NCBI RefSeq assembly: GCF_032854445.1
Contig: NC_088303.1
Coordinates: forward strand, 13,151,501 to 13,215,500
Source: Liolophura sinensis
Taxonomy: Eukaryota > Mollusca > Polyplacophora > Chitonida > Chitonidae
Length of the DNA: 64,000 nt
Direction: 5' to 3'
The notes beneath the pieces are model-generated. The model was not told where the DNA came from. It searched no databases and worked only from the letters and a program-made list of their open reading frames with translations. Shown in pieces: positions 19,814-59,791 of this stretch (position 1 is the first letter of the stretch; each line of letters opens with the position of its first letter). The translations under genes and the position numbers were made by a program.

Positions 19814-22046
19814 TCAGCGCCCATTTTGGTTTTCCTCATCGAACGGGTAAACTGCTGAACCATAAAGAAAGTTCCCAAAGACATCGGCCAGTTCAGAATT
19901 ACATCGCTCTTTGATCACTTTAGCTATACACTGCTCCCCATCCCGTCCCAGCCTACAAATAAACACACGGAGTGGGATTCCTTATTATATAGGTAGTCCA
20001 GAGCCAGGCTGAACCAGGGGCAATTCTAATTCACCATGAGTTTAGCTGGCAGACATTAAGTTAACCTTACAAATTACATACACGACTGACATATACAGGC
20101 AAGTAATCAGTTGTATACAAACATCATTCTGGCATATTATCGTATTAGGCTTCAAGAAAAATTCCACGGTTAACTTAAAACAACCTTAAAACGCTTTCCT
20201 AATTCAGTGTGATGCATTCCTTATATCGGGGTTGATGATATTCCACTTACGTGACTTGATTTACTTGAAAACTTACTTTTCCATCAGCTGTTTCATAGCC
20301 GTGATCACGGGCGAGGATGAATCCAGTTTTCTCAATTCTTCTACAAACGATCCCCAAGCCACTTGAGCGCAGCGAATAGTTAGACTTGATATTCTGTCCA
20401 GGCAAGACACATCTCTTTCTAGCACTGCAAAACAAATGGTGAATAACAAATTTACTTTGTTAAATTTGTGAAAATAAGTCAACTCGCAATAGGTCAGATT
20501 AAGCTGAACGGTAGCTCAGGAAGAAAAGGTTGTAAGAATAGGGGGGTATATCCAACAGAAACTGACGAAACCTTGCTTATACTCCTAAAAGGCATTCCTA
20601 ATTGACAGTTACCTTAATGTTCTTATAAACTTACCACTTTGTTGGCTACAGAGGTAATTTACACCGTCGCCCAGTAGGTGGGTCATTTTATCCCATATCA
20701 CCGCCCCTTGTGCACCAAAGCCGGGATCACAGCCAACCACAGCTTCCCGCTGGCACTCTCCGATATCAGCTCGATGAGAGGTGCTACGTCAATCAAAATG
20801 AAAAGATGTATATAATTTCTGGTTATGATCACAACAGGAAAGCGCCCAGGTGATTGCTGAAATGTATTGCGTTCTTCTTTCGATCTAGATTTACAAGAAA
20901 TAAAGCTTGTACGTATGTTTTTACAATGTCTCTAGTTTTCTTCGTAAAAGGTAGATTCGGGATTCAATCCTAAATCGAGTCCTACCCATCTGTAATCTTG
21001 GTAACACCTCGCTGGACAGTCGACACAGTGTCAATATAATTTGACTCGGTGGGGCTGGGTATTTGGCATCCAGCATTATGGTGGGAGGAAACTGGACGGG
21101 ACCGGGGTCATCCTTAGGTTGCACGATCATGTGTATAGCACAACTAAAGATCAAGTCAAGTGATGTACATCACATCATGAGCAGGATAGGTCATGTCATA
21201 TGTGGCTCATATTAATACTCTATTTCTGGACATGGATACCAATTCCCTCTGTCCACACCCTTCATCTTCGCCGTCATAAATTTCGGCAGTAGACATATCA
21301 CTCTCGCCATGAAGAACGTCCAAATGAGCATGTAGCTATCTATTTAATAAATACCAACTTCAACGTGATACTGTTTCGTAAATTTCGTTTTGATGAAATC
21401 GAAAAATAGCTCAAATATTTATTTTCACACATTAACTGTTGTTTTCAATGGCTTTGAATTGAAACAGAGGGCCAGTGGGGTTGATTTGAAATCAATGCGT
21501 CTAAGTAGACATTTGCATACAGGCCGGTAACCAAAAGGGATGTTCCGGTGAATAATCATCAGGCCAGTTCCCGCACGAGGTTTAACACCGGTAAACCACC
21601 AAAGAACTAAGAAAGTGAAGTACGAAATTAGGACGGAAGCATGCAAAGAGAAGGCTAGAGAAAACAACAACAAGTCATACTGACCGACAGAATGTGAGAA
21701 GCTGTGAAATATTAAACAATGTTCGTTCATAGACACGTTGTTCACGATAGATGACGTCTTCATTGTAACCCCAGAGCTGGTTACAGCCAGCTATTCGAGT
21801 TGTTACACCTGGGGGACATTCCTCATCTAAAACATAAAAAATAAAGGGAAATATTACTATGTATTCCCAATACCCAACTGTCCATCAATACATGCACAAG
21901 TGGCAGAAGATTTATCACGGAATGAGAAAAGTTGTTGAAAATATTTTCGTTTCTGTTTAGAACGTAATAGGGGTAAAAGTTAAACATGCCTTACCCAAGG
22001 AAGAAATGAATTGCACCAAACAGAGGAACATCACGATAAAAAACAT
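19814..22046 (-). CDS. TCS-A: secreted ten-cysteine protein (209 aa), unrecognised family
   Basis: Minus-strand exons 22046-21995, 21826-21685, 20783-20635, 20424-20277 and 19952-19814 join in frame (phases 1, 2, 1, 2) into 630 nt. Exon 1 codes for a signal peptide (MFFIVMFLCLVQFISSL). The mature chain has ten cysteines: three in exon 2 (EEC, AGC, TFC), three in exon 3 (ECQ, GCD, LCS), two in exon 4 (SCL, RCA) and two in exon 5 (QCI, RCN), so five disulphides are possible. Exon 5 ends in an acidic/polar tail after NFLYGSAVYP. It is closest to TCS-B, which faces it across 1.67 kb and shares even 3' UTR sequence. All donors are GT and acceptors AG. Function unknown; export from the cell is the only safe inference. 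Confidence 0.9.
21060..21130 (-). repeat. SINE family A fragment
   Basis: Contains CCAGCATTATGGTGGGAGGA and a diverged continuation, within intron 2 of TCS-A. Confidence 0.7.
21500..21684 (-). repeat. Retroelement 3'-end repeat, copy in TCS-A intron 2
   Basis: On the minus strand it contains TTAGTTCTTTGGTGGTTT, shared with copies at 28.2, 32.5, 36.9, 53.4, 57.5 and 58.8 kb. At 28 kb and 58 kb the same repeat follows reverse-transcriptase sequence, so it is read as the 3' part of that retroelement. It lies directly beside the exon 2 donor. Confidence 0.75.
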
Positions 22047-22510: not shown

Positions 22511-22575
22511 AGAGAGTAAAACCAAAGCAGCGACGACAGTGTTATAGTTGTAGTAGCATTGTCGATCGCCACAAG
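22511..22575 (-). repeat. Leader-like repeat, copy 1
   Basis: Motif AGAGAGTAAAACCAAAGCAG on plus; on minus it reads as a hydrophobic stretch (VVAALVLLS). The start-codon end is degraded. It lies between the divergent TCS-A and TCS-B genes. Confidence 0.75.
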
Positions 22576-23030: not shown

Positions 23031-23430
23031 AATGTACTAAATGTGATGCTGTGATTACCACTGTCCATCATCTCAAATTGAATGTACTAAACGTGATGCT
23101 GTGATTACCACTGTCCACCATCTCAGATTAAATGTACTAAATGTGACGCTGTGATTACGACTGTTCACCATCTCAAAATGAATGTACTAAATGTGACGCT
23201 GAGATTACCACTGTCCACCATCTCAAATTGAATGTACTAAACGTGATGCTGTGATTACCACTGTTCACCATCTCAAATTGAATGTAATAAACGTGATGCT
23301 GTGATTACCACTGTCCACCATCTCAAATTGAATGTGCTAAATGTGATGCTGTGATTACCACTGTCCATCATCTCAAATTGAATGTACTAAACGTGATGCT
23401 GTGATTACCACTGTCCACCATCTCAAATTA
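23031..23430. repeat. 50-bp minisatellite, eight units
   Basis: Eight head-to-tail units of 50 bp, each with AATGTACTAAATGTGATGCT, GTGATTACCACTGTCCA and CATCTCAAATTG, differing by a few point changes. The array ends about 210 bp before the TATA-like box of TCS-B, within the shared upstream region of the divergent pair. Confidence 0.97.
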
Positions 23431-23640
23431 AAACCACTGAGACGACCAACATAACTGATAGTAGATAATTTTACGAAACAAAGCGAAATGCCGTCGTGAA
23501 CGTGTTATTTTGAGAATGACACTTAAATGTCTATCTATGAGATGTATATATATATATGTGTGTGTATTAAGAGCTGTGCGGCATTTTGCAATTTGCAATG
23601 ACATTTATCCCTTGCATAAAAGGTCGCTGTAATAATGGTT

Positions 23641-23713: not shown

Positions 23714-26700
23714 ATGTTGCTCCTATTGGTTTGCCTGAGTTTTGTGGGTGTGAGTTTCTCCTATGGTAAGAAAAGTTTTTTTTTCATCACATGCAGCTCC
23801 GACACCCAGAGATTTGCATGATAGAGTTAAGCAGCCTCTGACCAATGCTACCGCCGCAGGTTCAAGTCTAGCTCATGCTGATTTCTGCTAGATCGTACGT
23901 GGGAATGTCTTTCATCAACCTGCTGATGATCACGGATTTTCCCGGGTTCTACCCGTTTTTCTCCCTCCGTGACGCTGGCCACCGTGCTATAAGTGAAATA
24001 TTCTCGAGTAGGTCGTAAAAGACCCATCAAATAAATAAATAAATTAAATAATTGATTAATATTTTAGTGTTCATTTTCCATTGCATGACAAAACTTCTAG
24101 TTAATTAATGAGGAGGTCAGCATGACAAAAATAGAACGAGTCCACATCAGCTCGAATGCTTTCAACTATCTGCTTAATATTATACAACTATAGATCAAAA
24201 TTTAGATGACAAAAATTTCAATTTGACCCAAAAATTTAAGATAGTATATATTTTATGAATAGCAAACAATATGTACAGAGAGAACGGTAAGGTCACGATG
24301 CTAATTCCAACCTCCACGATATTAAAAGATAGGCAAAATAGGAAGGTGTATAATGATCTTAAAGGCGGCGTAAAAACAACAATTAAATATACTAACATTA
24401 GATTATATAATGAAATGATGAATGGTACTGTTCATTACAATAACATGCATCATAAAATTAAACCTTATAGGCCAAGTTGTTATATTTTTGCTTTTGCTTT
24501 GTGGACATTACGTGGTCAATGACGCTCGTGTGGGAGTTTGCGCAGTCTAACGTTCGCTGAAAAGACCACTTGTCTTCCACCATTATAGTGTGTACATATA
24601 CGCACGTCTCATCCATACGTCTCATCCAAACGTCTCACTTTACTACATTTATGTTTTATCCCCGGGGCACTCCGGTTTTCGCCATCCACAAAACTGACAC
24701 ACCATTGGATAAGCGAAACAATATTTGAACATGGCGACAATTAAATAAAAAGGTAAATATTGTTGCTTCTTGTGGATCTAATGGTTGCTCTGAAAACTGT
24801 CCACTTCCTGAAGTTATGCTTTTACTTACAATGGTGAACATCCCCCAGTTATCACGCACGAATACTCTCGGTGCAGTCTTAGTGGGTTTTATTTTCCTTT
24901 AAGGTGAGCCCTGTACACATGCAGTTATTACTCGCTGTAGCCAGATGTGGGGGCTTGACGAGGATGTCATCACTCGCCGACAACTCATATATGGACGTCC
25001 TATGCTCAACATTTCACAACTGCTCACATTCTGCAGGTCAGTGTCAAAATAAATCTGAAAATAAATAACAACAAATAACATAACCTCAGTATGGAAGCCG
25101 GATAAGGCTATCATCGTACCATCGTTCAATCGCTCGACGATGGCACGAAGCCATGGAATGATAATGAGAAGTGATGGCACGAGGGCACGAAGCGAGGGCG
25201 CGATGGAACGAAGCGATGCCACGATGGCACGATGGCACGAAAAGATGACACGATGGCGTGAGGCGATGACACGATGGCACGAAGCCAGGGAACGATGGCA
25301 CGAAGCGATGACTCGATGGCGCGAAGCAAAGTTACCGGACACCAGTTACCAAAACTACTATGTACTTCAATCTAAAACCTGTTTTTGACACTGTCATATT
25401 TGACTTACATCGCGCGATATAATCTTTTATAAATGAACTTTATTTTATCTCTTGTATTATATAATTTCACTGCGGTATGGTTTTAGAGCTGGATGTTAGG
25501 AACTTTTGTTATGAAAGTCAATATGACCTAGTCTGTTAGCTAAGACAGTAGTGCAGACTGTGTTTTACTGCGTGGAGTTTGTTCTAACCACATGTTGTTG
25601 AAGCTATTGTAAAGCAAATTACTCTCCACGTCCATTGCCCAGCATGCGGTTTTCTTGTTGAATAATTATGACGTCATCCAACACAATGAGGTCTTGGTTT
25701 TGAAACCAGGCTTATGGAGATTAGCATTATGAATGAGAAAAATTATTCTAACTGCATTTTCCTTGTAGTAATATAGACGTACAACATATCAATGTATAGA
25801 GCTTGGGCTGTTGTGTGTCACTAATGAAAGGTAATTTTGGTAGCGAGAATGGCTGACTTTACGGGTAGCTGTCTACAGGCGAATGGATAAAATAATAGAC
25901 TATAGTAATATAATGTATCTACCATAACTTCACGTCACTTGTCTTGAGGCCCATGACACGATAATGCGAAGCAATGGTACGATGGCACGAAACAATGACA
26001 CGATGGCACGAAGCAGTCATACCATCGCTTCGTGGCATCGTATCATCGCTTTGTACCCCTGTACCATCGCTTCGTGCCATCGCCGGGCGATGGAACGATG
26101 GTACGATGATGGCCTTATCCGGCTTCTTTACCTTTGTCATTTCGGATAAATGATTAAGAGACCGTAGCCATTGTTCTAAATCATTGATAACTCTAGAAAT
26201 CAGCTTTTTTTATATTTTCACGAGGCCATCAAAGACACCACGTTGGTTAACACATAAAACAAGGTCTGCATGACGCAAACTGGATGAGGCATGTACTCGG
26301 ATTATAGAAATAGCTCGCGCCTAATTGGTTAAAATTGATACAACATTGCTGAGCTTTTTTTTGTCAATGCTTAGCTTACTTTGAATTGTGATATGTCGGT
26401 TATGCAACTTGATAAAAATAAAGGCGTGTGTGACACTTACTGAGACGCAAAAGGGACATGGCAGTTTTATTTTTTGACTGTGCTTTTTTAAATGTTTTCC
26501 ACTTTCACAGTCGGACTTCTTTCTTTTTTTATGCAGGGGTCCGACTTAGCTATCTCGAGCCCCGAGACAACCAGCCAATCATGATCTTGTTGTGAATGTT
26601 TCTCTTTTTTTGTCGTCTACTCAAAAACAAAAAGAAAAACTCCAACCCGATCTCTTTTTCTAGAAGTTTTCTTTCTTGGGTGTATAGAGCTGCTTAAAAA

Positions 26701-29511
26701 AAGTAAAACTCGGACTGCAAAAGTGGGAACAATAAAAACGCACACTTAAAAAAGGAAGTCTGCTATATCCGTAGGTACTTCATTGAGACAAATACAAATT
26801 TGGTCCAGTGTTGTTTGTCCTTTTAAGTATGCCTACTACCTATGTTCACGAACTGCGAAAGCTTGCAGTGATGCTACCACCAATTGTACTGGTGCCAACA
26901 ACCAAAATACGTATGGCTGGTGCTGTGATTTCGGTGAGATCAACATGCCATCCACCATACAATCGTTCCATTTTGAACCAAGAATCGATAACCGTTTAAT
27001 TTGACAGTCACAGCTCGGAACATTCCGACCTGGTCACATGGGGGAAAAGTGGATTGCTTCCTTTTCCTTGTTCATTCTTGTCGAAATATCAAATAACGTG
27101 CAACGAAATTTGACGAAGCTGACGCCCGAAATCATCCCGCTCTTGAAAAACTACAGCCGGCACAAACCAACTCTGAACGTAGGGAAATATCTATGAATAA
27201 ATGCCTTGTTTGCTTGAACTAAGAAAATCTCAGCGAAAAGCAAAATGGCACCGAATGATCAGTTAAATACGCTCGGGGTCGTCACCATAGCGACCGCGGT
27301 TCACCGGGCTCGGGACACTTTGATGGTGCTCGCCGCACTCTGAACAAGATCGAATTCGTACTTCCTAAATAAATTCGACCTTTGATGGACAATATGCATA
27401 AGATAAAGGTGTAATATACAGGTGTAAATAAAACGTACATACAAAATGATAATTTTAAAAATGACTTAGAAACATGATCTTTGTTTTAGAGATCCTTTTC
27501 ATGTATCCTTTTAAGCAAGGGTAGGTTCCAAAATGAAGATATTTCGTGGCATAAATAAGTGCTTCTCGGACTGAAACGAGTGAAATTATTGGAAAATCCC
27601 TTTCAAATCCGAATCGGTTTACTTTTGAGGATGCAGAGAAAATTGTCCGTAGGTCGCTCCGGATGATCTGTGACACCATCGCATTAGGAAGGTAGTTTAA
27701 AATATGTTAAATGTTCTTCCTCTATAATCGGATGAGCACGAATACTACGTACGTTGTATTTTCATTTCTCTATATTCACCCATGTAGCAACCCTGACCGA
27801 GCTGATATCTCAGAATGCCAGCGGGATGCCATAGAAGGTTGTGATTTGGGGCTAAGTGACGAAGGAAATGATCTCTGGAACGAAATGAATGACTTGTTGG
27901 GTTTAGCAGTCAATTTTCTATGCAGCAAATCAAGCGGTAAGTTCCTGAAATAGCTCATGCCACGATTCCCAGCGTCTGTCGAGATATGTTATACTGGTAT
28001 ATTTTGTGGTATTCTTGAAATTGTATCGTTGCCTTTAACCGAGTGCTCTTTAAATAAGAACAAGCGTAAGAAACTAAGAATATAAGAACAACTATTTGGG
28101 TTACACAGTAAATATAAGTGTCATGTAAGACATTCATAATCCATTCGTAGTCCGTAAAGGGCGTTCCAAGTCGATAATCACAAGATCCATTTCCAAAACA
28201 ACGTTTAACACTAGCTCACAAAGATAAAACGTATTTAAGAAATTATGCAAATAGGAAATAAAGCCGGTAACACTGAAGAGAGAAGCGGTTGCACATGCTG
28301 GTCTGTAACACTCGACAACCAGCGCCATCTGCGTTGTTAAATACCATGTACGCGATAGATATGTACATTAGGATAACAGCGCCGTCTATGTGGTTGATCA
28401 CAATGCAGATCGCCAGAGATTCTGAACGCTCTGTCTATACCTGGCCAACGAGAGTGTTATACTCATTGTAAAATTTGAGAAACTTAGAATGAAGGCGTTT
28501 GATGGAGTATCCTTGACTAATTAGTTTTTGAACTAACGACTTGTGACCCAGATTAAAGTCATCACAATTTACGCAAGATCTGACAAATGCTACAAGGCGA
28601 GATATGTATACGCCATATGCAGGACCCTTTGGTATATTGCTATCCAAATAGGGATAATTTACAATATCAAATTGAAATTATCCCTTTTGTCGTAAAGGCG
28701 GCGTGAAAGGAGACCTTGTTCGTCTTTGTACAGATATAGATCCAAATAAGATGTACCATCAGGACTATCTTTAAATCCAACGAAGGCGGATAGACTTCGC
28801 CGTTTCAGCAATATGGGGGTTATTTAACGTGAGTAAATCATCAGTATACAGCTTGGTAAATGAAAAGGATCGAACTTTAAAGATATTACTTTTAAGTAAG
28901 ATCACCTGCCATATTTCTCTTCTGCAGTGCTGGAAAGGGATCAGGCGTGCTTGGATGGGATATCAAACCGTATTGTTCGCTGTGCACAAGGGGCATGGGT
29001 GCGGTTTACCCAAAGCGTGGGTGAATCAACCACCTGGGGCGACCGAAAAAAATTCATGGAAAGGTAAGCTCCTGAATACAGGTTTAGTTCTTACTTATGG
29101 AAAAAAGTTACGAGCATCTGCATGGATGTCTAAAGCATTTGGCCTTTGGATAACAGAAAATAACCATTCTTTTCAAAAGCACCATACCAGGGGAGCAGGT
29201 CGTGGCCGAGTGGTTAAAGTGCATGGCTTTAAGTGTTTAACACATGTAGGCCTACGCTAATGGCAGTTTGTTTAACACACCTAGTCCTGATAGTGTATGT
29301 ATATGTAGTCTATATTGATCAGTTTGCGTCATGTCCTTACATGTGACTTAGCACATTTTTGTTTATTTGTAGAGCGGGACGAGACAGGGAAAGATGCATA
29401 TTTAAGGTGATAAAAAAGAGATGTAATTCTGAAGTGGCTAATGTCTATGGAAACTTCCTTTATGGGGCAACCGTTTATCCGTACGACGAACAAAATCAGA
29501 ACGGGAGCTGA
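23714..29511 (+). CDS. TCS-B: secreted ten-cysteine protein (202 aa), unrecognised family
   Basis: Exons 23714-23765, 24904-25036, 27788-27936, 28928-29063 and 29373-29511 join in frame (phases 1, 2, 1, 2) into 609 nt. The signal peptide is MLLLLVCLSFVGVSFS. Exon 2 holds Cys in EPC, RCS and TFC. Exon 3 is 149 nt with DISECQRDAIEGCD and FLCSK. Exon 4 has VLERDQACLDGI and VRCAQGAW. Exon 5 has RCIFKVIKKRCNSEVANVYG and NFLYGATVYP. It differs from TCS-A mainly by a 9-nt shorter exon 2 and a 12-nt shorter exon 4. Intron 2 (2.75 kb) contains a 1-kb inverted-repeat element and intron 3 a retroelement fragment. The protein is predicted to be exported and disulphide-rich; its activity is unknown. Confidence 0.9.
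23837..24049 (+). repeat. SINE family A in TCS-B intron 1
   Basis: Truncated copy starting near the B-box (CAGGTTCAAGTCTAGCTCAT) and ending in ATAAGTGAAATATTCTCGAG and an AAATAAAT tail. Diverged. Confidence 0.85.
24050..24903. other. Rest of TCS-B intron 1, nothing recognised
   Basis: AT-rich; frames of 67-83 codons without motifs. A SINE-like scrap (GGGGCACTCCGGTTTTCGCC) is at about 24662. Confidence 0.4.
25094..26126. mobile_element. 1.03-kb inverted-repeat element with subterminal satellite
   Basis: The left end GAAGCCGGATAAGGCTATCA and the right end, read inverted, GAAGCCGGATAAGGCCATCA match for about 55 bp with a few mismatches. Inside each arm is a short-unit satellite built from CGATGGCACGAAG (25130-25330; 25960-26090, partly itself palindromic). 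The centre (about 25350-25940) has no recognised gene. No clear target-site duplication is seen. It lies in intron 2 of TCS-B. A non-autonomous DNA transposon is the simplest reading. Confidence 0.75.
26130..27787. other. Rest of TCS-B intron 2, no gene recognised
   Basis: The stretch 26440-27360 is T- and A-tract rich, then balanced in composition with a few short open frames (63-73 codons). It may be an unknown repeat, but I find no second copy or terminal repeats in the window. Confidence 0.4.
28130..28865 (-). mobile_element. Retroelement fragment: RT C-terminal part plus 3' region (Penelope-like, tentative)
   Basis: On the minus strand, 28860-28650 codes in shifted frames for DDLLTLNNPHIAE and YLDLYLYKDEQGLLSRRLYD. 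Then 28647-28435 is an intact 70-codon frame with DSNIPKGPAYGVYISRLVAF and a QGYSIKRLHSKFLKFYN segment. The region 28330-28140 is the 3'-end repeat found at seven other places. Frameshifts show it is dead. It is the best-preserved copy of this element in the window and lies in intron 3 of TCS-B. Confidence 0.8.
29205..29245 (+). other. tRNA-Ser-like fragment
   Basis: GTCGTGGCCGAGTGGTTAAA matches the 5' half of a serine-type tRNA (acceptor strand, D arm with A box). The anticodon arm and T arm do not follow, so this is a tRNA fragment or SINE head, not a working tRNA gene. It is in intron 4 of TCS-B. Confidence 0.6.
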
Positions 29512-36666: not shown

Positions 36667-36864
36667 TTGAACCTCAAATCAAACATCTGTAAACATAAAG
36701 TTGAACATAAGATTATTTCCTTCATTTGATTGTTACTTTTAGCTGGGTTTATGTCCTTTTGAAATGCATGATGCTGATTGGCTTTGTAGGAGGAAAATGC
36801 TAAACCTCGCCAAGTACTTAACAATCGTCCCAACATCATTCTAGCAATAACCCTGGGAATACTA

Positions 36865-37287: not shown

Positions 37288-37854
37288 TGCATCCAGGGAG
37301 TTTTATCGAGTGTATAATACGGAGATTTATCTATATACAGACGAAATATTAAATTTCCTTCAACTAATAAAAGTAATATTACACTGGCTCGAATTAGATA
37401 TCACTTTTGGTATTACACACCTCGACGCCATGACGTCACAAAGACACATTTTGTTATATGACTTTCCAATCAGAAGCAGAAAGACGTCATAATACAAATT
37501 CAGTCAACTTTACAAGACGTCATGCGCGACGTCACGCTATACACAAGCCTGTGAAGGTCTACAGCCAAAAACATTGCTGAAACCTGTTCACATACACACA
37601 ATCAATATATTGTCAAAATATAAATAATAAATAGAATATTGCACACTGGAGGTTGAATATCATAAATACTTTTCTCATAAAAGATGGACATGATAACCCA
37701 CGAGACGCGAAGCCTCCCACTTGACAAATAATTATGACATTCAACCTTCACACTTGCAATATCCTCTATGTATTCTTTTTACGTTCAGAAATACAAGATA
37801 AAAATAAAAATAGTTGCGAGGGGCGTAAATTTAGACAAATGTGCACGGTCATAT

Positions 37855-38130
37855 ATTTATTTATTTATTTGGCTGTTGTTTAATAATTTTTCAGAACTGT
37901 TCACTTATACGATAGCTCCTAGAGCCTTTCCTCAATGTGGTCGCTGTGAGTTCAAGTCCAGCTCATGCTGGCTTCCTTTCAGGTCGTACATGAGAACGTG
38001 TGGCAGCAACCTGCGGATAGTCGTGGGTATCCCGTGACCGGTTGCCTCCCATCATATTAGAAGTATAAGTGAAATATTCTTGAGTACGGTGTAAAAACAT
38101 CAATCAAATAAATAAACAAATAAATAATTC
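37855..38130 (+). mobile_element. SINE family A with an inverted tail at its left end
   Basis: Starts with a tail-like TTTATTTATTTGGCTGTTGT in inverted orientation, then GTGGTCGCTGTGAGTTCAAG onward in plus orientation to an AAATAAAT tail. This looks like one copy inserted into or joined with the tail of another. Confidence 0.85.
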
Positions 38131-40650: not shown

Positions 40651-40651
40651 T

Positions 40652-41172: not shown

Positions 41173-41194
41173 ATATTTACATGTATTAGATTTA

Positions 41195-44665: not shown

Positions 44666-47600
44666 ATGTTTTACGTATACTCCAGCCTCCTTATAGCCTG
44701 TTTCTGCTGCACTGTTCCCGCTTCGGCCAACACGGGTAAGTGCACTTTCTTCTTTCTTCTTAAATGCAAACATTGCTTAGACTATATATTGACCATTTTT
44801 GTCCTTCTTTGGGTGTAGAGGGTAATTATGGAAAGTGCAGAGGTTGTTTCTGGCATCATCGCATGTGTCTTCCAGTAAAGGCTCGTACTATTGTCTATTT
44901 CATTTATGCATGTCACTGTTTTTTAAATAATCAGATAGTAATCAGTTCTTGCCGTCGAAACCGAGCTTACGCAGTTTAAAATTATGAACTAGAAAAAGCG
45001 TTCTTACGTCATTTTTGTGCAAAAATATAGGTTTCCAACATATTCATGTGTAGAGCTCATGTTGTTACATTTCATTGACTAACCGAGTAAACTAGGATTT
45101 TACAGATATACAGACGACTGGCTAAAAGAAAAAAAAACTGTAGTAGAGGGTGATGTTACGGAATTGTCATTTTTGAGGTAGGCCAGGCTCCTTCCCAATA
45201 CAGCGAATACAGAAACATCACAAACTTGTGTCAAAATTTGAGTTTAGTGGCTATATGCAGTTAATCTGTAATAAGTACCATAATACATCAAAGGTAAGCA
45301 GCTCTAATACGAGATCTGGGGTTAATGTAACTTTTCTTCATTACACTAATCAGTTAAGTGCATTTTTAACAACTGGTCAAACAGAATTATCACAGCCTCT
45401 TGGCCGCCTTGTTCGCCCAATGTTTGAAATATAGCAAATATTTCTGAAAATTGGCACAATTAACGCGTCAGTAAAGTTCTACAGCTCACTAAAGCATTCA
45501 CTGGTATGATTAAATTTAATAAACATTATTGTATTGAAACATCGTAACATAAAAGGGAATAATAACGCAAACATGTCTTAACAAATAACATCATAAAAGT
45601 CTTGCTGGCTGAGTTTTCTAATGGATTCCCTCCGGATTTTGGCCGCTGATAGCTAGTGTTAAAATCTATACCCAAGTGATTAATCTGTGATATTATTATG
45701 TATCAGATTGTAATTTCCTCGCCCTAAGCGGTTTCCTCCAGCTTTAACTCGGACAGCCATCAAGTGAAATAATTTTATAAGCAAATATATGGACCATGAC
45801 AGAAAGAGGAACTAGAGCATGAAGAACGTTATAGCATTGAACTGTGATTGTAAAACCACACTTTGTATTTTGTGAATGCGTTAAAAGCCTTAAGTCTCTT
45901 GAGAGACGGCACTCTAGCCGAGACACAAACTTTTGCTGATTGATAAACGGAGGAAGATAATTCTGGCGCCATATTTCCTGCTGCTTGCATAAATCAGTCA
46001 TACTTCAAATTTTAGAGTACGACGTTAAACCCAAAGCACTCACTCACTCAATCACTCAAATTTTAGACTCTAGGTAGGAATGACTACTACCAGCGCATTG
46101 TTTTCAGAAAGGCTGTGTGATTATGACGATTACCTTCGGGTGGCGGAGTGTTATAGTGACTGGGGGTACGACTTCACTGTGGTACCTCACCCTGGCGCCG
46201 TGATCTGGAACATGACCACCCTAGTGGAGTTTTGTAGGTAAGACACTCAGTCCACTGTTATTACTTGTCTTTTTTCTATCCTGCGTGTTTTGTTGAAGAA
46301 GTGACATAAAATGTTTAGATTCGCAACTGGTATGCCCCGATACAGAACTGGAAAACTTTTGGCACAATATTGTGACTATAAGAATACCTTAAACCCCTGT
46401 AAATTCAGAGAGACACATCCTTCCCTGGAGTCGACAAGAATACACACGCTGCTCTTCCATACTGACTACTTTAGACTGGCGGACTGTGTTTAAATGAAAT
46501 ATAAAGAGAAATTTAGATAATAAGCTGGTCTCGAAAACCCCTTGACATATTTTCAAACACAGAGAGAACTATCGGTGGAGGGGATAAATAAAACCAGCAA
46601 ACAGTACTACACACATACAGTGTGAAAGGAAGTGAAATAAACCTATAGATATACCCAACCTAGCAACTTCAAAACCTGTACAGTCAACCAAACCGTATAC
46701 CAAATACTAGTATTCAGATTTCTTCCAAAATCCATAGGTGCTCTAACATTTGTTTGTCTGCCATTCGGCTTTAGAGTACATGTGTGCTCATTTTACTTGT
46801 TTCACAATGATAAAACTGGAAATTTTCGATAAGTTGTTGTTAGGTACCGTGCTGTATCACTGTAATGTAGAACTCTTCTAAATCAAAAGATAAATGCTGG
46901 CCACCGTCGTATGAGTGAAATATTCTTGATTACGGCGTAAAACACCAATCAAATAAATAAATAAATATGTGTATAAATACATGTGCCCTAACTTACGATG
47001 GCGAATCTAACTCAGTAAATCCACCAAAGCCTTATAATTACTTTGGACAAATTTAAATCCGAGTCTAACCTCCCTTCACTTGATGTGTTTGCAGTCGTTT
47101 TGTAACTACGATATCTTCGTCATGCAAGCGGATCCAAGCACTATTTTTGTCCATGCTTTGTCCAGTTCCCGCCAGTTGTAAACCCGGCTAAAGTCGCAGG
47201 ACGGGACTATTTTAAGACCGTAAACAACAAAGAAAACCCAGTAGACCTAAATCAAAACGTGTGATTTCCTGTAGGACCCCGAGCAGACGACAAGTGTCAG
47301 GTTGCTTGAAGGACGCCTTTTCCCGCTGTCAGTTCTCGGAGTGGGAAGAAGAGAACGAGGCCCTCCTCCGTCTCAGTGACATGTCAGACGTCGCTCTTAA
47401 GTTCATATGCTCAAAAGCAGACGGTAAGTGTGTGTGGATCTCACCTGATTGTTTTGTAAGGAAAAAAAGTCCCAAATCTAAGTGCTGCTGGATTAAGAAT
47501 CAAAATAATTATAAGATATCCTCATTTAGATAAAAACAGATAAATGGTAATGTGATTTGGAATTTGCCACGCGAACCACACAGACCATCATTGTACAGTC

Positions 47601-48685
47601 GCCAGGTCCTTTTCTATATTCAGGCACGATAAATGCATTTTCCTATGAGTCATTGTGCGGTTGACGAATAGCACAGACACTGAAATTTTTGTCAGAAATA
47701 TATGTTACTTCCTCCCATTTTCTCTTGGGAAAGCAAAACCACATACTCTCATATGACATTATTACTATTTTAATACTTCAATCAATGTTGAAATTATGGC
47801 AAAGGCAATTAATTTCATCTGAATTTGATCGATTCGCTGATAGATAGATTAATTGATGAACAAACCTGCTTTATGTGTTTCAGTGATAGAGGAGAACAAA
47901 GCCTGTATAGAATCCGATGACTACAGCGTAAACAAATGTATTCTAGACGCTAGCAATGAAGCCGAAGGAAGGTTTATGGAATTGGCATTGAGTGGGGAAC
48001 AAATGGCCTGGGCTGAAGTCAAGTCAATCAAACAGAGGTACATTATATACTTGTGTATGCCCACAGCTTTCCCCTGAGCATGTCAGTAGTCCTCTTCGTT
48101 ATCCGTCTCCTCGAACCCTTTGGTCTTATCAGTGAAGGTAGAGCCTGAATGTTTGAAACCGTTGAGTATCTGTTCGTATCTGTGGTGAGTCGTATTTTGA
48201 AACACGTGCAAATCATATGTACTTGAGGAAGAACTTTTTAATTTCATAAAATCTCATAAAAGGATGAGAAATGTGGAGAGTGTCAAACGTCAATTTGTGT
48301 TTATTATCATGCAGTATACCAACACAGCTATCTATAATTTAGTTTAAAACGTGCACCCTGGATAATGGTGCACCCTGGATAAGTTTGTGTAGTGATCATG
48401 CTTCTCTTCCAGATACCTCACCATCATCGTATATGTGAAACTTTCGTGATTAATCCTTAAAAACCCATTCAAAATAAATAGATTTATCGTGATTAAAAAC
48501 AATTGTTTTCTTTTCTCGATATTTCGTAAGTTACGTGAACACATTCTTGTTTTGTTTGCATTTTCAGGCAAGCCATAACGCTCACAAAATGTGTAAGGAA
48601 TGTACTGAAGAACTGTGATCAAGAGGTAGCAATGGTGTTTTCCAACTTTTTCTACGCCGGGTACACGGTCTATGGCGACGATTGA
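44666..48685 (+). CDS. TCS-C: secreted ten-cysteine protein (206 aa), unrecognised family
   Basis: Exons 44666-44735, 46108-46237, 47275-47423, 47884-48037 and 48568-48685 join in frame (phases 1, 2, 1, 2) into 621 nt. The signal peptide is MFYVYSSLLIACFCCTVPAS with cleavage near ASA-NT. Cysteines: exon 2 RLC, AEC, EFC; exon 3 (149 nt) SGC, SRC, FIC; exon 4 KAC, NKC; exon 5 TKC, KNC. Exon 3 carries many acidic residues (EWEEENEALL). Exon 5 TLTKCVRNVLKNCDQEVAMV and NFFYAGY align with the other three genes. The chain has no membrane segment beyond the signal peptide. It is intact, while its tandem copy at 50.5-53 kb is broken. Function unknown. Confidence 0.9.
45720..46060. repeat. SINE scraps in TCS-C intron 1
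   Basis: A tail-like piece at 46016-46060 (ACGACGTTAAACCCAAAGCA followed by CACTCACTCA) is the family B tail in plus orientation. The block 45840-45990 is the intron segment that also survives at 51555-51735. Confidence 0.6.
46885..46972 (+). repeat. SINE family A tail in TCS-C intron 2
   Basis: GCTGGCCACCGTCGTATGAG to AAATAAATAAAT; only the last about 90 bp of the element. Confidence 0.9.
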
Positions 48686-49179: not shown

Positions 49180-50099
49180 AAAATAGATATCCAAAAACAA
49201 CAACGGAATTCTGACGGAACACTAACTTGATAAACTCCAAAGTATACACTTTCACTGTTGTTCATTAAGGAATCCATCTGCATACATGTTTACACTTGCT
49301 TACTGCAGGCATATTGAACGTCACATGAAAACTAGACAGGCCAACACATTTTGAGGGACTCATAAAAACGAGATATTAAAAAGTCACCTTCGTCCGTTTG
49401 ACGCGCACTCTGCACAGGCCCAAGTACGTCATGCCTTGTTTTCATGTAACTGTTTATTAGATGTTATGACAACACTGCACTCTGCGTGATTCTACACCAG
49501 TGACGTCTAATGAATTTCATTTAATATTTAGTGCATTTTAACCTAAATCTGCTTATTCCGTGTATATGTGTTTGTCTTTTAACCAAGACTTGTGCACCCA
49601 GATAACAAAAACGTCCCATCGCTTCATTGCCCACTTTCCCCATCGCTCCGTAACCAGAGAAAACAGCGATGGTCCATCTGCGCCATCACACTAATTTCCT
49701 CAGAATGAAATGCATTATGACGATGTGAGATTCAAATAATAAACAAAAGTTATTTCAGTAATCGACGATTACGGCTATCAAGCTACAAGCAACATTTCAT
49801 ATCGCATTTATATGCAGTCACATACATGCGCTTGGCGTAACTTCCGTGGTAACGTATATAGTGAAGAGATACGTCACCAAAGTAGTTGCGTTGCGACTGC
49901 TGGGTAATATGGGTCCCAGAATGTAAGAAGACCTGGAGCTTATGGAAGCCGTGGTGGGTAACTACATATTGAAGGGAAAGTAGCGAAACATTATTATTTC
50001 GCTCATATCTTCAACGTGTGTTCGTGTAGTCTCAATGTCGGTGTATTTATTGCGGTGCTCCATTGCAATGTGACCCCAAAGGCACCAGGCACAATATAT
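49180..50099. other. No gene recognised
   Basis: Spacer between TCS-C and its decayed copy. No motif recognised. Confidence 0.5.
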
Positions 50100-50275
50100 T
50101 GATATTTATTTACTTATTTGATGGGTGTTTTACGCCGTGCTCAAGTATATTTCACTTATATGACATGAGCATCATTTGTAGTTTGTTGGCTACGTACGAT
50201 CGCAGCGGAAGGGACATGAGATGTACTTGAACTCACAACAACCGCACTGGCGAGAGGCTTCAGAGGTTCACAATC
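50100..50275 (-). repeat. SINE family A, internally deleted
   Basis: Tail (TTTGATGGGTGTTTTACGCC) and the B-box region (TTGAACTCACAACAACCGCA) are present but most of the body is missing. Confidence 0.8.
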
Positions 50276-54187: not shown

Positions 54188-57100
54188 CTAATTGTGTGAG
54201 ACATATGGATTGGCATACACAGCGTAGATAAAGTTCCCGATGATGCTGGCAATCTTCTGATTACAGAATTGTGATGCGGCCCGAAAACTACATGACGCGG
54301 CGGTCTCGCCAAAACTGCAAGTGAAAAACAGTAGAGGCTGTATGAGGTTGTTACTAATTAAGTAGTTAAATGACCACTTACAAGACCATAACTGATGTAA
54401 ATTGTCAAGAGGCCAGGTTTCACCGGATAGTATCACCATTTTACAGCTATCATATTGTTGTTGCCTCTCTGGTTGTACTCTATGGTGTACAAATGGAATG
54501 CTTAGTGCACTTACAGAATCATGGTTTATGAACACATTATACGTATTATAAAATACTTACAACGTAGAGAGTAAAATCGGTTAAAACTAGCGATGACAGT
54601 GTGATAATTGGCAAGTGGTCACACGTAACCACTGAAGTATGGCCACTTGTCAATTTAGCAGAGTTAGGGTTTTATTCTGGCGTCCGCGTAAATGCTTAAA
54701 TAGTAGCAACTCTTACAGGCCTCATATAGCACTATGGCTTAAGCAGAATGAGGTAAACAAATATGTGCAGCGATCTTAATCGCAATATTCTAGAGGTCAC
54801 TGGTCTAGAATTACTCATTGTTGTGCTGTCAACACATTTAATATAAAATACATTAAAACAATGCAAGGGGATCCGATTTAGTGGACGCTTATTCGACCAG
54901 CAGAATCCCGGTTTACGCAGGAATATAATATAAAGGCTACAACAATGATAATAAAACCACAGCAGCATCGCCAGTGTTACCTGGCAAATAGTCACACGTA
55001 ATCAGTGAAATAAGGTCTGTTGTCAGTTTAACTTAGTTTGGGTCTTATTCTAACTGTTTTTGTGAATTCTTAAATAGTTACATGTCCCGTAGCAAAACTG
55101 TGTACAAAATAAAAAGACTCAAGCACAGCGTGTAAAACCGGAACAGCGACGTATGGGGGACCAAATTAACATTTATTCGAAAATTAACGATATCGATAAA
55201 TAAAATATCAATATCAATAAATATTTATAACTATCGCTAATTCATTTATCGACAGAGACACAGTGGCACGAGTGATACACGTGCTGGTATAAAACCCTGT
55301 CCGTATAATACAAATTTTGCAAATTCCATTCGTTTTACTCGATTCTGCTAAAACTTCCAGTTAACATATTACGAGATGTCATCAAGGAGCAGTAATTATA
55401 GTAGGGTTATAAAGGCGGAATTATCGATATCACTAAATCGCCATATTTATCTATATGGCTAATTAATTCATTTATTGACATCGCTTATTCATTTATAGAT
55501 ACAGCTATTTTTTTTTATGATTTCCTTTATCCATATCGATAAATGATTTATTGATATCGATAATTCTCGTGTTAATTTGGCTCCTCATACCGACGACGGT
55601 GTGAACTGTACACGTCTTCTCTGATCTCTTCATAATGTGCAGAGCGGTTCTCAACATTTTGTTTATAGTACAAACTTATAAGAGCTGTTCTTTTATATTT
55701 ATATTATATATTTACTAAGTCATTCTAAAATTAAAGTAGTGAAGATATCATAAATATTAAAACATACCTTTTTTTAATCCCAAGTTCTTGTTTATCTGAA
55801 ATGGTCGAGACTGTAAAGAAGGAGTCTCGTATCTTGTCTGCCTCGTACTGGGCGTTCAGCAGACACTCCTCTATCTCGCTCTTGGCGCTTTCGATACATC
55901 CAGCGTTTTTCTCTAAATCTGTGGCCAGGACAAAAAAGATGCACATATAATTAAAGAGGTACAGTATAGAGAGTAAAACCAGACAGTGTGATAGCTGGCA
56001 AATGGTCACACGTTACCGCTGAAATCCGGATTTTTGTCACGTACCACACGTAAATCATCTAAGAATATCATTAAAGACGTACAAGGTCGAGAGTAAATCC
56101 AGAGCCGTGACGACAGTGTGATAATTGGCAAATGGTCACACGTAACCGGTGAAATCTGGAAGTATCACCTTACACGCTTCCATGCACAATGGCTTGAGGA
56201 GAATTAGCTTTAAAAAATTCCAGTGAAGGCAATTACGATGTAAGTAGTTGTGGCTCTTTGGTCTCTTGGAACATAGTAATACCTCTGTGACTTAAACTGC
56301 ATCATTTCAGACCTTGACATCAAATACGTCTTCTTGGTATTAAAATTGCGCACATTTATGCTTCTTATCTTTTCTTCTGTTGATTGGATATTTCGTAGGC
56401 CGCGTGGACCCGAGATTTCTTGGTGATGCTCACAGCAAACGGCTTACTGACAGCTCTGACACATTTGTCGAAGGCAGTTAACTGCATCAACAGAGCGTGC
56501 TCTTACGTTGGTTTGAGTACATTCTTGGCCGAACAAAATTCTGCCAAACCTAACGTCAGAGCAATCTTGGAGTAGTTTTACTCTCGTTTTATATTGGCAA
56601 GGATAAGGTGAATAGCTCTTTATGATTCAGATACTGCATTCATTTTTAATTGTGTGATCTTCTAGGTGGATTTAGTACACTGCGGGGAACAACCCTTTGT
56701 ATGTATTTGCTGCATTGTGTTTTCACCTACCTTGGGCCTGGGAACAAAGATAAGTGTAGCCTGGCTTAACGATATTCATCTCTGTCATGAACTCCACCCG
56801 GTCATCTGCAGTCCACTGGCCATTACATGGCGACCAGGCTTGTTTAACGCACTCCATGGGATCAGCACTCTGGGGCAAACTTCAGTGAGAGAACAGCCAT
56901 TTGTTAGATGAGGCCGTATATACCCAACATAGTATGGGAACCCCAGACAGAGTGAAGAGGTGAAATATATTGACTGCCACTTTTAAATGATGTCCACCTT
57001 TTATCAACAGAAATGTGAACCTCGTTTCGGTATTTTGCTATATTAGTTAAAAATTAAAATTTTAAGTTCATTGAGTGCTAAAAACCTGTTGTGTATTATA

Positions 57101-59791
57101 GATTACCTAACTATAAACAGACTTTTAAAAACTTTAATAATAATCAATAATAATATCATTAACTAGCTTGGCTGGATGGACTGACAATGACCTTTTGCAT
57201 TCATCGGATTTCCATACCTACAGAATTCGACCAAGGCGCGGACGTTGATGAAGGGGTGCCCTGGCTTGTATGAGAGGCCAGTCTGTCGGTAACATTCTCT
57301 CAGGTTTTCAGTCAGGCTGTAGCCAGCCGGGCAATCCACACGGTAACCGGAAACTACAACTTTCACAACACAGTTACCCCCCTTAAGTTAACGGCGATAA
57401 TCCACGATTTCTGGGTCTCCAACCACGTTGATCGAATGGATACAAGCTCGTTGGCAAATATTTATGAAACCATGCGTCGAAACAGACATTCGTAAACAAG
57501 CCGTCAACCAATAAGGATGTTCCAGGTCAATAATCGCAAGGCCAATTCCCAAAACGACGTATAACACAAACCACCAAAGAACGAATAAAGTGTATAAAGT
57601 ACGAAAATAGGACTGAATGATGCAACGAGAGGCAGTCAACAGTTTTCAATGATGTTGGACAGACGCAAGGTATGTTCTAAGCGACTGAGTGAAAGGTATG
57701 TTCTAAGCGACTGAGTGAAAGATGTTCAAAGAGGATTTGACCGACACTGAGCTATGTAAAGAGTGCAATTTCTCTTAAATCCTGAGCGTAAAACAACTAC
57801 AACTAATCGCACAGTAAGGGTATTAGCTGGTTGGGGGAGGTGGTATTTTCTGTCCCTTTCAGGAGAATGAAGAATGAAGGCTTTGAAGGTTACCACCAGG
57901 TGTGTATAGCTTGATGGTGGGCTAAATATGCATGTGCATTTTTGGAAACTGTAATATGTAAACGCTAACATTTCTAAGCCGCTATTAATTTTAGGAGAAT
58001 ACAGAATATAAATATAAAATTTACACTAACATGCTGCATATTCGAGGGGTGGGGGTGGGGGGTGGGGGCGCTTTTATCCATGATGTTCTTACTGTCAAAT
58101 AAAGATGAGAAAACAAAAACGTCGACACAGACCGAACGCAAGATATGCTAGAAATAATTCTTAAATACTAATTAAAGGTGGTAAGGTCTCCAGGTCTCAG
58201 AGGGAAGCAGTCATCAGGTTCCAGTGATACGTGAAAGACAGTCGTTATTCTTGGCATTACGACAGGCATGGCTTCAATTGTGACATTGTAAATTATCCTT
58301 ACTTGGACAGCAATATACCTACGCATACATATTTTGCCTATTAGCATTCGTTAAATACTGTGTGTTATGTGACGATTCAATCAACGTCACACGTCATTAT
58401 TGCAAAACAAAAGTAGTGTATCAAGGCTATCCCATCAAACACCTTCACTTTTCTTAAGTTTCTTAAGTTTTGCAGTGACTGTAGTTCTCTCATGGGTAAA
58501 TATGGAGCGTCCGGAATCTCTGGCGCTCTGCTTTATGATTGTGTCTGGCTCCGCATAGCCGTAGCCATAGTGCTGGGGATTGTATATTCATCCTGTTGTA
58601 TCAGAGCACAACGGAGATACTTATATTATTACTATTGACACGTATACTGGCATGGTACACGATTTGAATACTGATTTCACTCATTCGCCTAGAACATACC
58701 TTGAACTCTTCCAACATCAATGAAAACTGTTGAGTACTTCTCTATACTTCACTGTTAGTTCTTTGGTGGTTTGTGTTAGACGACTTGGAGAATTCTTGAA
58801 GACTTGGACCTGGAGCATTCATACTGGTTTACGGCTGGCATTCGAATATCTGTTTCAAGGCATAGATCCAATTCAAATTTCTCCTATTCCGTGGAAAATT
58901 TTCACGTCGAATACAACCTCTGTTGTGCTTTGATTAGAACTATAAATTCACCAACTTCATGTAACTAGGATGGAGGCCTATACAGCCGTTAGCCGCAGGT
59001 TAAGTGCAATTAGATATAGATATGACACAGAGATTCTGAAAGCTAACAAGTGTTGTAAACTCGCTGTAAAATTTTAGAAACATATACTGAAGGCGTTTGA
59101 TGAAGTATCCTTGACAGGTTTTGAAGCACTGATTTGACAGACAGTTTTTCAGTCAATCATCAATATTGAGCCTATATCCTTGACAGATAGTATTTGAGTC
59201 AGTAACATTTGATAAAATATCATCGACACGCTAACTTTATAATTTTTTTTATTGAGATCGTCAAATATCACCAGGAAAGGTATGTACAGGACTCTTTGAT
59301 GTATTCTTGTTTAGGTAGGAACATGTAAGAACATCATTAAAGTGGTCCAACATGGAGAGTGAAACCAGAGCGGCGAGGACATTTTGATATCTGGCAAATG
59401 GTCACACGTAATCCGAGGAATAAGGTCTCTTGTTAATTTACTTCAATAACAACGTGAAAGTAGAAAGTGTTACTTAAGCTTGAAAGGAAACCGTTGTTAT
59501 ATTTGTACTGATACCAATCTTTTCAAATAAAACAGATACATACAAACCTTATCCAAAATTAATAATAATAAGATTCCTATTGTTTAGAAAAAATGGATTT
59601 TTCAGATTTTACTCAGGAGTATCTGTAAATATCCAAGACTAATTTCTCACAAAACTAACTGTATTTAACTCTGCACAGTGAATATTTTTTAAATGACAAG
59701 CTGTGGCTGTCTAGACCTGTGGCATACCTGTAAGATAGGTGACGGTCATCACCAGCAGGGTGCACGCTGATGTTGAAGTCACGGTCACCAT
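54188..59791 (-). CDS. TCS-D: secreted ten-cysteine protein (208 aa), unrecognised family
   Basis: Minus-strand exons 59791-59728, 57353-57218, 56879-56731, 55918-55768 and 54314-54188 join in frame (phases 1, 2, 1, 2) into 627 nt. Exon 1 codes for a signal peptide (MVTVTSTSACTLLVMTVTYL). Cysteines: exon 2 VDC, REC, EFC; exon 3 (149 nt) MEC, SPC, YLC; exon 4 AGC, EEC; exon 5 ASC, QFC. Exon 5 FCNQKIASIIGNFIYAVYAN aligns with the VYGNFLYG and VFSNFFYAG segments of the others. It is the most diverged member. Introns are large and full of repeats: retroelement 3' ends and an inverted RT pair in intron 1, leader-like copies in introns 3 and 4, and a 440-bp MITE in intron 4. Exon 1 is about 2.4 kb from exon 2, so its assignment is the least certain part. 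Function unknown. Confidence 0.85.
54563..54715 (-). repeat. Leader-like repeat, copy 6
   Basis: On minus: GCTACTATTTAAGCATTTAC, CCAGAATAAAACCCTAACTC, then TTGCCAATTATCACACTGTC and a run ending CTCTACGTTGTAAGTATTTT, which contains a donor-like GTAAGT. In intron 4 of TCS-D. Confidence 0.8.
54945..55085 (-). repeat. Leader-like repeat, copy 7, with intact start codon
   Basis: On minus, ATG at 54995 opens MTICQVTLAMLLWFYYHCCS. Upstream are CTATTTAAGAATTCAC and TTAGAATAAGACCCAAAC. In intron 4 of TCS-D. Confidence 0.8.
55151..55590. mobile_element. 440-bp MITE with terminal inverted repeats
   Basis: Left end GTATGGGGGACCAAATTAAC and right end, inverted, GTATGAGGAGCCAAATTAAC match. Further inward both arms carry ATCGATATC-type palindromes. 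Flanking CGAC at 55147-55150 and 55591-55594 may be a 4-bp target-site duplication. No coding capacity. In intron 4 of TCS-D. Confidence 0.82.
55967..56045 (-). repeat. Leader-like repeat, copy 8, in frame with TCS-D exon 4
   Basis: On minus, ATG at 56009 opens MTICQLSHCLVLLSILYLFN and continues through the exon 4 acceptor into exon 4 without a stop (92 codons). The first base of exon 4 follows a G in the acceptor AG, so the exon's reading frame is the same as after splicing. A possible alternative first exon; see findings. Confidence 0.7.
56060..56160 (-). repeat. Leader-like repeat, copy 9
   Basis: Plus motif GAGAGTAAATCCAGAGCCGT with AATTGGCAAATGGTCACACG. It reads ACCATTTGCCAATTATCACA on minus, with GTG in place of the start ATG. 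In intron 3 of TCS-D. Confidence 0.85.
57400..57660 (-). repeat. Retroelement 3'-end repeat, longest copy
   Basis: On minus: CATTGAAAACTGTTGACTGC, TTCTTTGGTGGTTTGTGTTA and GCCTTGCGATTATTGACCTG, ending near CGGCTTG. It is open for 83 codons with hydrophobic content (GIGLAIIDLEHPYWLTA). Whether that frame was ever translated is unknown. In intron 1 of TCS-D, close to exon 2. Confidence 0.8.
57660..57722. repeat. 26-bp tandem duplication
   Basis: GGTATGTTCTAAGCGACTGA and the following GTGAAA occur twice in a row. Confidence 0.97.
58225..58930 (+). mobile_element. Retroelement fragment: RT C-terminus plus 3' region, plus orientation
   Basis: Codes for FNCDIVNYPYLDSNIP at 58270-58315, then degraded sequence (YQGYPIKHLH) and the block GAATCTCTGGCGCTCTGC also seen at 28 kb, then the 3'-end repeat at 58730-58900. 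Stops interrupt it. In intron 1 of TCS-D, antisense to the gene. Confidence 0.78.
59055..59330 (-). mobile_element. Retroelement RT fragment, minus orientation
   Basis: GAAGGCGTTTGATGAAGTAT and TCCTTGACAGGT match the inverse of the RT segment at 28.5 kb (GAAGGCGTTTGATGGAGTAT). It faces the plus-orientation copy at 58225-58930, giving an inverted pair. Confidence 0.7.
59330..59450 (-). repeat. Leader-like repeat, copy 10
   Basis: Plus motif CATGGAGAGTGAAACCAGAG with ATCTGGCAAATGGTCACACG. About 280 bp inside intron 1 of TCS-D. Confidence 0.85.

What the first reader, a model, noticed from the sequence alone, without database searches (positions are those of the whole stretch)
19814..59791. A cluster of four secreted ten-cysteine protein genes (TCS-A to TCS-D), possibly an undescribed family
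Four genes, found only by joining short exons, share five exons, intron phases 1-2-1-2, a 149-nt third exon, a signal-peptide first exon and ten cysteines spaced alike (3+3+2+2), yet differ strongly elsewhere. Lengths are 209, 202, 206 and 208 aa. Strong structural conservation with weak sequence conservation suggests a disulphide scaffold under diversifying selection. The cysteine layout (FC, then C, C, then a hydrophobic-Cys motif before a Gly, then C and C) recalls DUF1397 and DUF19-type secreted proteins; I could not test this.
Basis: partly seen in the sequence, partly recalled or inferred. Interest (0 to 1): 0.9.

Follow-up and report, generated by a model that had tools for sequence, protein, structure and literature searches.

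The report
Unannotated mollusc family of cysteine-rich proteins
Four neighbouring mollusc genes appear to make related secreted, helix-rich proteins with ten cysteines each; they belong to a larger gene family without a model in the libraries searched, and their cysteine layout resembles that of a protein that snail hearts release into the blood.

Summary
TCS-A to TCS-D are four homologous five-exon genes (third exon 149 nt, 209/202/206/208 aa, ten mature cysteines). Two readings change. Selection: the one measurable window pair (A-B) is under purifying selection (dN/dS 0.17-0.23), not diversifying. Size: the same mollusc genome (haemocyanin units) holds at least six more ten-cysteine genes that fit the same exon plan, and a deeper branch of single-frame twelve-cysteine relatives, some with mucin-like or hydrophobic tails. 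No Pfam model reaches its cut-off. DUF19 never appears. DUF1397 appears colinearly but below threshold (2 of 10 members; consensus E 0.001), near the noise of such scans. The best functional guide is CRASP, an "orphan" haemolymph protein released by Achatina atria on nerve stimulation: ten cysteines, mapped disulphides, similar spacing over C3-C8. Residue similarity to CRASP is marginal, so kinship is suggested, not shown. Most likely role: stable, all-alpha secreted binding proteins.

The parts
21995..22046 (-). TCS-A exon 1 (signal peptide)
   Evidence: ORF from ATG, GT donor, phase 1
21685..21826 (-). TCS-A exon 2 (C1-C3)
20635..20783 (-). TCS-A exon 3, 149 nt (C4-C6)
20277..20424 (-). TCS-A exon 4 (C7-C8)
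19814..19952 (-). TCS-A exon 5 with stop (C9-C10, GNFLYG motif)
23714..23765 (+). TCS-B exon 1 (signal peptide, provisional)
24904..25036 (+). TCS-B exon 2 (C1-C3)
27788..27936 (+). TCS-B exon 3, 149 nt (C4-C6)
28928..29063 (+). TCS-B exon 4 (C7-C8)
29373..29511 (+). TCS-B exon 5 with stop (C9-C10)
44666..44735 (+). TCS-C exon 1 (signal peptide)
46108..46237 (+). TCS-C exon 2 (C1-C3)
47275..47423 (+). TCS-C exon 3, 149 nt (C4-C6)
47884..48037 (+). TCS-C exon 4 (C7-C8)
48568..48685 (+). TCS-C exon 5 with stop (C9-C10)
59728..59791 (-). TCS-D exon 1 (signal peptide, provisional)
57218..57353 (-). TCS-D exon 2 (C1-C3)
56731..56879 (-). TCS-D exon 3, 149 nt (C4-C6)
55768..55918 (-). TCS-D exon 4 (C7-C8)
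54188..54314 (-). TCS-D exon 5 with stop (C9-C10)

Best explanation
TCS-A to D are members of a mollusc gene family of small secreted, all-alpha proteins. A signal peptide sends them out of the cell. Amphipathic helices pack into one domain, and five disulphides lock it. By analogy with the measured pattern of CRASP, the pairs are C1-C2, nested C3-C6 around C4-C5, and nested C7-C10 around C8-C9, which clamps two helical hairpins. Between the cysteines the surface can change, so tandem copies can bind different ligands (a protein or a small hydrophobic molecule) in haemolymph, mucus or another secretion. Shown here by computation: gene structure, homology, ten conserved cysteines, helical periodicity, and single-frame twelve-cysteine relatives, some with mucin-like or hydrophobic tails. 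Inferred: disulphide pairing, place of expression, ligand binding.
For: Homology and exon plan. Gaps between cysteines across ten genes: C3-9/10-C4-7-C5-24/26-C6-11-C7-10-C8 and C9-7/8-C10. Conserved hydrophobicity has a strong alpha-helical period (100 degrees: 13.7 against 5.0 +/- 1.1; 0 of 500 shuffles as high) and no excess at 170 degrees. Twelve-cysteine relatives; profile hits of 23-33 bits, 0 of 1000 Cys-kept shuffles as high for each of five domains (close for Na, 31.1 against 32.9); hhalign probability 95.3%, E 2e-8 for the single comparison. CRASP (PMC4596865): ten Cys, five mapped disulphides, gaps 9-6-28-11-11 over C3-C8, mostly helical by CD, secreted into haemolymph.
Against: CRASP differs at both ends (C1-C2 gap 4 against 7-12; C8-C9 gap 8 against 33-43; C9-C10 gap 10 against 7-8). 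Its residues match the family only marginally: 5.1 bits with the ten-gene profile, 22 of 2000 Cys-kept shuffles as good; 223 and 751 of 2000 with two wider profiles; hhalign probability 0.8%, 11 of 100 shuffles as good. CRASP finds nothing in this genome. CRASP's own pilot assays (antibacterial, opsonic, agglutinating, haemolytic, neurotrophic) were all negative. No expression data, no structure, no ligand.
Confidence: 0.55

Rival explanations
1. The family is a mollusc branch of Pfam DUF1397 (recalled as the arthropod 27-kDa haemolymph protein family), and works as those proteins of unknown function do.
For: DUF1397 is the top Pfam echo for TCS-B (14.0 bits), the second for H (14.2 bits), and the top one for two TCS-based consensus sequences (18.7 and 19.0 bits), each time colinear in nearly the same register (B 65-183 to 71-195; H 36-170 to 64-198; consensus 63-185 to 70-195 and 56-178 to 71-194). 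0 of 30 Cys-kept shuffles of members and 0 of the 10 scanned (of 30 made) shuffles of the first consensus hit it.
Against: Below the curated cut-off of 25.7 bits in every case; only 2 of 10 members show it, and Prefoldin_3 also matched 2 of 10 with a better E-value, 0.0038. None of the seven natural single-frame proteins scanned nor the two consensus sequences of that branch shows it. Consensus queries pull unrelated models at E about 0.003, so E 0.001 is weak.
Confidence: 0.35
2. The proteins are structural or protective secretions (mucus, shell or egg-coat matrix) rather than circulating binders.
For: One twelve-cysteine relative (L050 frame, 1038 aa) carries two such domains followed by long Thr-rich and Gly/Ala-rich repeats, and L051 has two domains with a short Thr-rich end.
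Against: TCS proteins themselves end soon after the domain and have no repeats; the repeats were seen in the deeper branch only.
Confidence: 0.25
3. The genes are fast-evolving defence, salivary or venom-like effectors.
For: Identities of 21-32% between neighbours; the young pair I-J shows dN 0.147 against dS 0.187. DUF1397 proteins have been reported in centipede venom (passages of PMC6878950 and PMC4379518). Sub-threshold echoes of secreted-effector models: Aegyptin_C for Q (E 0.044) and Macin for H (E 0.21), at chance level.
Against: A-B dN/dS is 0.17-0.23; I-J may instead be decay, since I has a shortened exon 3 and exon 4. No such model reached its cut-off.
Confidence: 0.15
4. The gene models are chance joins of open frames.
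For: No transcript evidence is at hand; splice phases were imposed in the search; exon 1 of B and D is weak.
Against: Leave-one-out scores of 76-200 bits with 0 of 1000 shuffles per gene reaching them, six further genes that fit the same plan, and relatives that read through the whole domain as one frame.
Confidence: 0.02

Closest known systems
CRASP, cysteine-rich atrial secretory protein of Achatina achatina (PMC4596865; UniProt W1I921 as stated there)
   Same: Mollusc; signal peptide; small mature chain (158 aa against roughly 180-190); ten cysteines; gaps over C3-C8 of 9-6-28-11-11 against 9/10-7-24/26-11-10; acidic; mostly alpha-helical.
   Different: C1-C2 and C8-C10 spacing differ; residue similarity is marginal; no match in this genome; expression of TCS unknown.
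DUF1397 (Pfam PF07165)
   Same: Length of about 200 aa; colinear sub-threshold profile match in one register.
   Different: Never reaches the cut-off; cysteine correspondence could not be inspected; seen in 2 of 10 members only.
DUF19 (Pfam PF01579)
   Different: No match in any Pfam scan of members or consensus sequences.
Single-frame twelve-cysteine proteins of the same genome (C1, C5, C10, C12)
   Same: Ten shared cysteines in similar spacing; profile-profile probability 95%.
   Different: Two more cysteines, no introns in the domain, in some a mucin-like or hydrophobic tail; a separate branch with 100/100 support.

Membership tests
DUF1397 (PF07165) | Score above Pfam's gathering cut-off, 25.7 bits | tested here: not met
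   Best natural member 14.2 bits (H), B 14.0; consensus 18.7 and 19.0. Own-genome search with the model: 0 over cut-off, without a positive control; its two weak matches hold 4 and 5 stops and show no TCS-like exons
DUF1397 (PF07165) | Colinear alignment over most of the model | tested here: met
   Two members and two consensus sequences align to about positions 64/71-194/198 of 207, at sub-threshold scores
DUF1397 (PF07165) | Same cysteines as the family | not testable with these tools
   The scan does not print the alignment and no member sequence is held
DUF19 (PF01579) | Any profile match | tested here: not met
   Absent with limit E 10 (HMMER's filters drop most matches above about 0.1)
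CRASP | Ten cysteines after a signal peptide | tested here: met
   10 of 10 genes keep ten cysteines; an exon 1 was found for 7 of 10, by splice phase and hydrophobicity only
CRASP | Cysteine spacing over C3-C8 | tested here: met
   Each of five gaps within 2 of the TCS range; random placement of ten cysteines gives five successive gaps in such ranges 43 or 175 times in 500,000, with ranges set after CRASP was seen
CRASP | Cysteine spacing C1-C2 and C8-C10 | tested here: not met
   4, 8 and 10 against 7-12, 33-43 and 7-8
CRASP | Residue-level similarity beyond cysteines | tested here: inconclusive
   22 of 2000 shuffles as good with the ten-gene profile, 223 and 751 of 2000 with two wider ones; hhalign 11 of 100; CRASP known for 142 of 158 residues only
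CRASP | All-alpha fold with disulphides C1-C2, C3-C6, C4-C5, C7-C10, C8-C9 | tested here: inconclusive
   Helical periodicity in TCS; pairing not testable here
CRASP | Expressed in atrial granular cells, released on nerve stimulation | not testable with these tools
   No expression data

The most novel reading that the evidence does not exclude
TCS genes, the single-frame twelve-cysteine genes and the supposedly orphan heart protein CRASP are one old molluscan family of all-alpha secreted binding proteins, also kin to arthropod DUF1397 haemolymph proteins. A nerve-triggered heart secretion of land snails would then be one specialised branch of a large, so far unnamed protostome family that ranges from haemolymph carriers to membrane-anchored and mucin-linked forms.
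Probability: 0.35. Interest if true: 0.65.

Novelty: new variant of a known kind. Interest (0 to 1): 0.5.

Why it matters
Secreted cysteine-rich families that diverge strongly are hard to annotate. This one has a fixed exon and cysteine signature, so it can be searched for across genomes. It offers a test of whether CRASP, described as an orphan with an open question about its taxonomic spread (PMC4596865, section 16), belongs to a wider family, and CRASP's disulphide map can be checked on any member.

Tried and rejected
DUF19: absent from every scan made. DUF1397 in the own genome: the two weak matches (L028, L029) are broken by stops and look like chance. NCBIfam: four matches at E 0.016-0.24, one member each, taken as chance. 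PDB by sequence: nothing for TCS, and one match at E 0.32, taken as chance, for 7 of the 9 twelve-cysteine domains. CRASP against the own genome: nothing; CRASP against Pfam: 0 families. An hhalign shuffle run timed out and was repeated smaller. Paper searches for a mollusc family with ten or twelve cysteines listed 3, 2, 15 (of 23) and 4 papers; I judged them by title and the start of the abstract and opened only the CRASP paper; the library holds open papers only. The phrase 'atrial secretory protein' is in 2 papers of that library. The DUF19 paper search was badly formed and shows nothing; '27 kDa hemolymph' with 'mollus' gave 0 papers. L031 and L032 hold B-like exon-2 and exon-5 pieces with stops; they were described as decayed and not joined or mended. 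E, G, H and I were not used as genome queries, and J never got an answer, so copies near them may be missed.

Full report
What was checked. The window lies in a 609-Mb genome, at C9:13151501-13215500. The genome is a mollusc's: a search with the molluscan haemocyanin model PF14830 gave 8 matches, all over the cut-off and in one cluster on C8, and one unit's open frame matches KLH1 and other haemocyanins in the PDB (that KLH is from the keyhole limpet is recalled). The four reported genes were rebuilt by listing GT-AG exons with the claimed phases. Every number in the finding held: five exons, 149-nt third exon, 209/202/206/208 aa, ten mature cysteines as 3+3+2+2. Because splice sites and phases were imposed, the independent evidence is that the joins give continuous, mutually homologous frames.

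Is it more than chance? Profiles made from three genes find the fourth at 76-200 bits, while shuffles that keep every cysteine in place stop at 24.3 bits. No further copy was recognised among six-frame segments of the window (next best segment E 1.2). DNA similarity between A and B is confined to four blocks, one at each of exons 2-5, covering exons 3 and 4 only in part. The claim of diversifying selection failed: A-B dN/dS is 0.17 (NG86) to 0.23 (ML), and dS is saturated for the other five window pairs.

The family is larger. TCS-B as a query gave 21 exon matches in the genome. Around them six more genes were rebuilt on the same plan, again with phases imposed and, where several splice choices were open, the one that fits the plan taken: E on C7; F, G, I and J on C9; H on C13. 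I and J lie about 13-28 kb beyond the window's end, so A, B, C, D, I and J lie within about 72 kb. All 10 of 10 keep the ten cysteines, with gaps C3-9/10-C4-7-C5-24/26-C6-11-C7-10-C8; exon 3 is 149 nt in 8 of 10 (G 146, I 143). Exon 1 was found in 7 of 10 (not in F, H and I). Two loci on C13 (L031, L032) hold only exon-2-like and exon-5-like pieces and look decayed (stops inside). Such searches give lower bounds, as the tool states; only B, C, D, F, one twelve-cysteine protein and CRASP were answered as protein queries.

A deeper branch. TCS-C matched uninterrupted frames on C12 (E 1e-4 and 0.05) and C5 (E 1.0); TCS-D (C5, E 0.02 and 0.7) and TCS-F (C12, E 0.05 twice) found such frames weakly too. 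These domains have no introns: L052 (343-aa frame), L051 (430 aa, two domains) and L050 (1038 aa, two domains followed by Thr-rich and Gly/Ala-rich repeats). One of them as a query gave 16 matches on C1, C5, C10 and C12, two of them weak (E 0.02 and 2.4). Four more were read: R and S end in a hydrophobic stretch that looks by eye like a membrane-anchor signal; P and Q show the start of a similar tail but are cut by the end of the fetched stretch. All nine domains read carry the ten TCS cysteines plus two more, one before C9 and one near the C-terminus. The two are present in all nine and absent in all ten TCS, so they are probably partners (inference). An alternative register of the last cysteines fits the spacing almost as well. 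Support for kinship: TCS profile against five domains 23-33 bits, 0 of 1000 Cys-kept shuffles as good for each (for Na the best shuffle reached 31.1 against 32.9, so that one is close); profile-profile probability 95.3%, E 2.2e-8 for the single comparison. A tree separates the two groups with 100/100 support; it is unrooted, with long branches (C, D, G, S).

What the proteins look like. Averaged hydrophobicity has a strong 100-degree period in both branches (0 of 500 shuffles as high) and no excess at 170 degrees, which argues for amphipathic helices. Nine of ten TCS proteins carry a net negative charge by simple count. TCS proteins end soon after the domain.

Against known families. Pfam: no member reaches a cut-off. 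DUF1397 appears below threshold in 2 of 10 members and tops two TCS-based consensus scans at E 0.001, colinear each time; 0 of 30 member shuffles and 0 of 10 consensus shuffles (10 scanned of 30 made) show it. Against it: Prefoldin_3 also matches 2 of 10 members, at E 0.0038; consensus queries of this composition draw unrelated models at E about 0.003; none of seven natural single-frame members shows DUF1397. I regard it as a lead. DUF19 never appears. NCBIfam and PDB add nothing.

CRASP. A paper search led to PMC4596865 (seen: abstract and outline, found passages, sections 9, 10, 11, 16, 18 and 25). CRASP is a 158-residue, N-glycosylated, acidic protein of the Achatina atrium, released into haemolymph on nerve stimulation, mostly helical by CD, with disulphides C1-C2, C3-C6, C4-C5, C7-C10 and C8-C9. 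Its authors call it tentatively an orphan and advise using the cysteine spacing to find homologues. Its gaps over C3-C8 (9-6-28-11-11) fit the TCS pattern to within two residues each. Ten randomly placed cysteines give such a run of five gaps 43 or 175 times in 500,000, depending on tolerance; the ranges were set after CRASP was seen, helical proteins may do so more often, and CRASP came from a list of 23 papers that mention ten cysteines, so this is an optimistic null. Residue similarity is marginal: best with the ten-gene profile (5.1 bits, 22 of 2000 Cys-kept shuffles as good), worse with wider profiles (223 and 751 of 2000), hhalign 0.8% probability with 11 of 100 shuffles as good. The aligned core is the stretch around C6-C7. 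The two ends of the cysteine pattern differ. CRASP was known to me only as peptides covering 142 of 158 residues.

How it most likely works. A secreted helical domain locked by nested disulphides, whose loops and surface diverge between tandem copies. The best analogue, CRASP, is proposed by its authors to bind a ligand in haemolymph. DUF1397 is recalled as the family of the insect 27-kDa haemolymph protein; '27 kDa hemolymph protein' is listed among louse salivary-gland secreted families (passage of PMC12106848) and DUF1397 among centipede venom families (passages of PMC6878950 and PMC4379518). I therefore favour an extracellular binding role, at about even odds, over a structural or a toxic one. 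No direct functional evidence exists here.

Verdict. It is a real family without a library model, larger and more varied than reported, of a known general kind. The most interesting outcome would be proof that it includes CRASP.

Noticed in passing
33919-36678 (-): A 919-aa open frame with leucine-rich repeats and a TIR domain, a Toll-like receptor gene in a single frame, lies between TCS-B and TCS-C.
   Followed up: partly
9712-10278 (-): Remnant of a Tc1/Tc3-type transposase (HTH_Tnp_Tc3_2, E 2e-5, below the cut-off).
   Followed up: partly
23047-23465, 40622-41199, 13272-13938: Three tandem-repeat arrays that read as repeated open segments in six-frame comparison.
   Followed up: no
4844-5057, 6829-7198, 12728-13139, 37738-38057, 50030-50227: Dispersed repeat fragments that share parts of one sequence, probably one mobile-element family.
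   Followed up: no
L050 2504-5620 (+): A 1038-aa single frame: two twelve-cysteine domains, then Thr-rich and Gly/Ala-rich (AAGAAG-like) repeats reminiscent of mucin or silk.
   Followed up: partly
L036 / L037 (C9:13.228-13.244 Mb): TCS-I and TCS-J are a young pair with dN close to dS (0.147/0.187); I has shortened exons 3 and 4, possibly a gene in decay.
   Followed up: partly
L031, L032 (C13:7.81 and 6.35 Mb): Two fragments with TCS-B-like exon 2 and exon 5 pieces interrupted by stops, with no recognised exons 3-4.
   Followed up: partly
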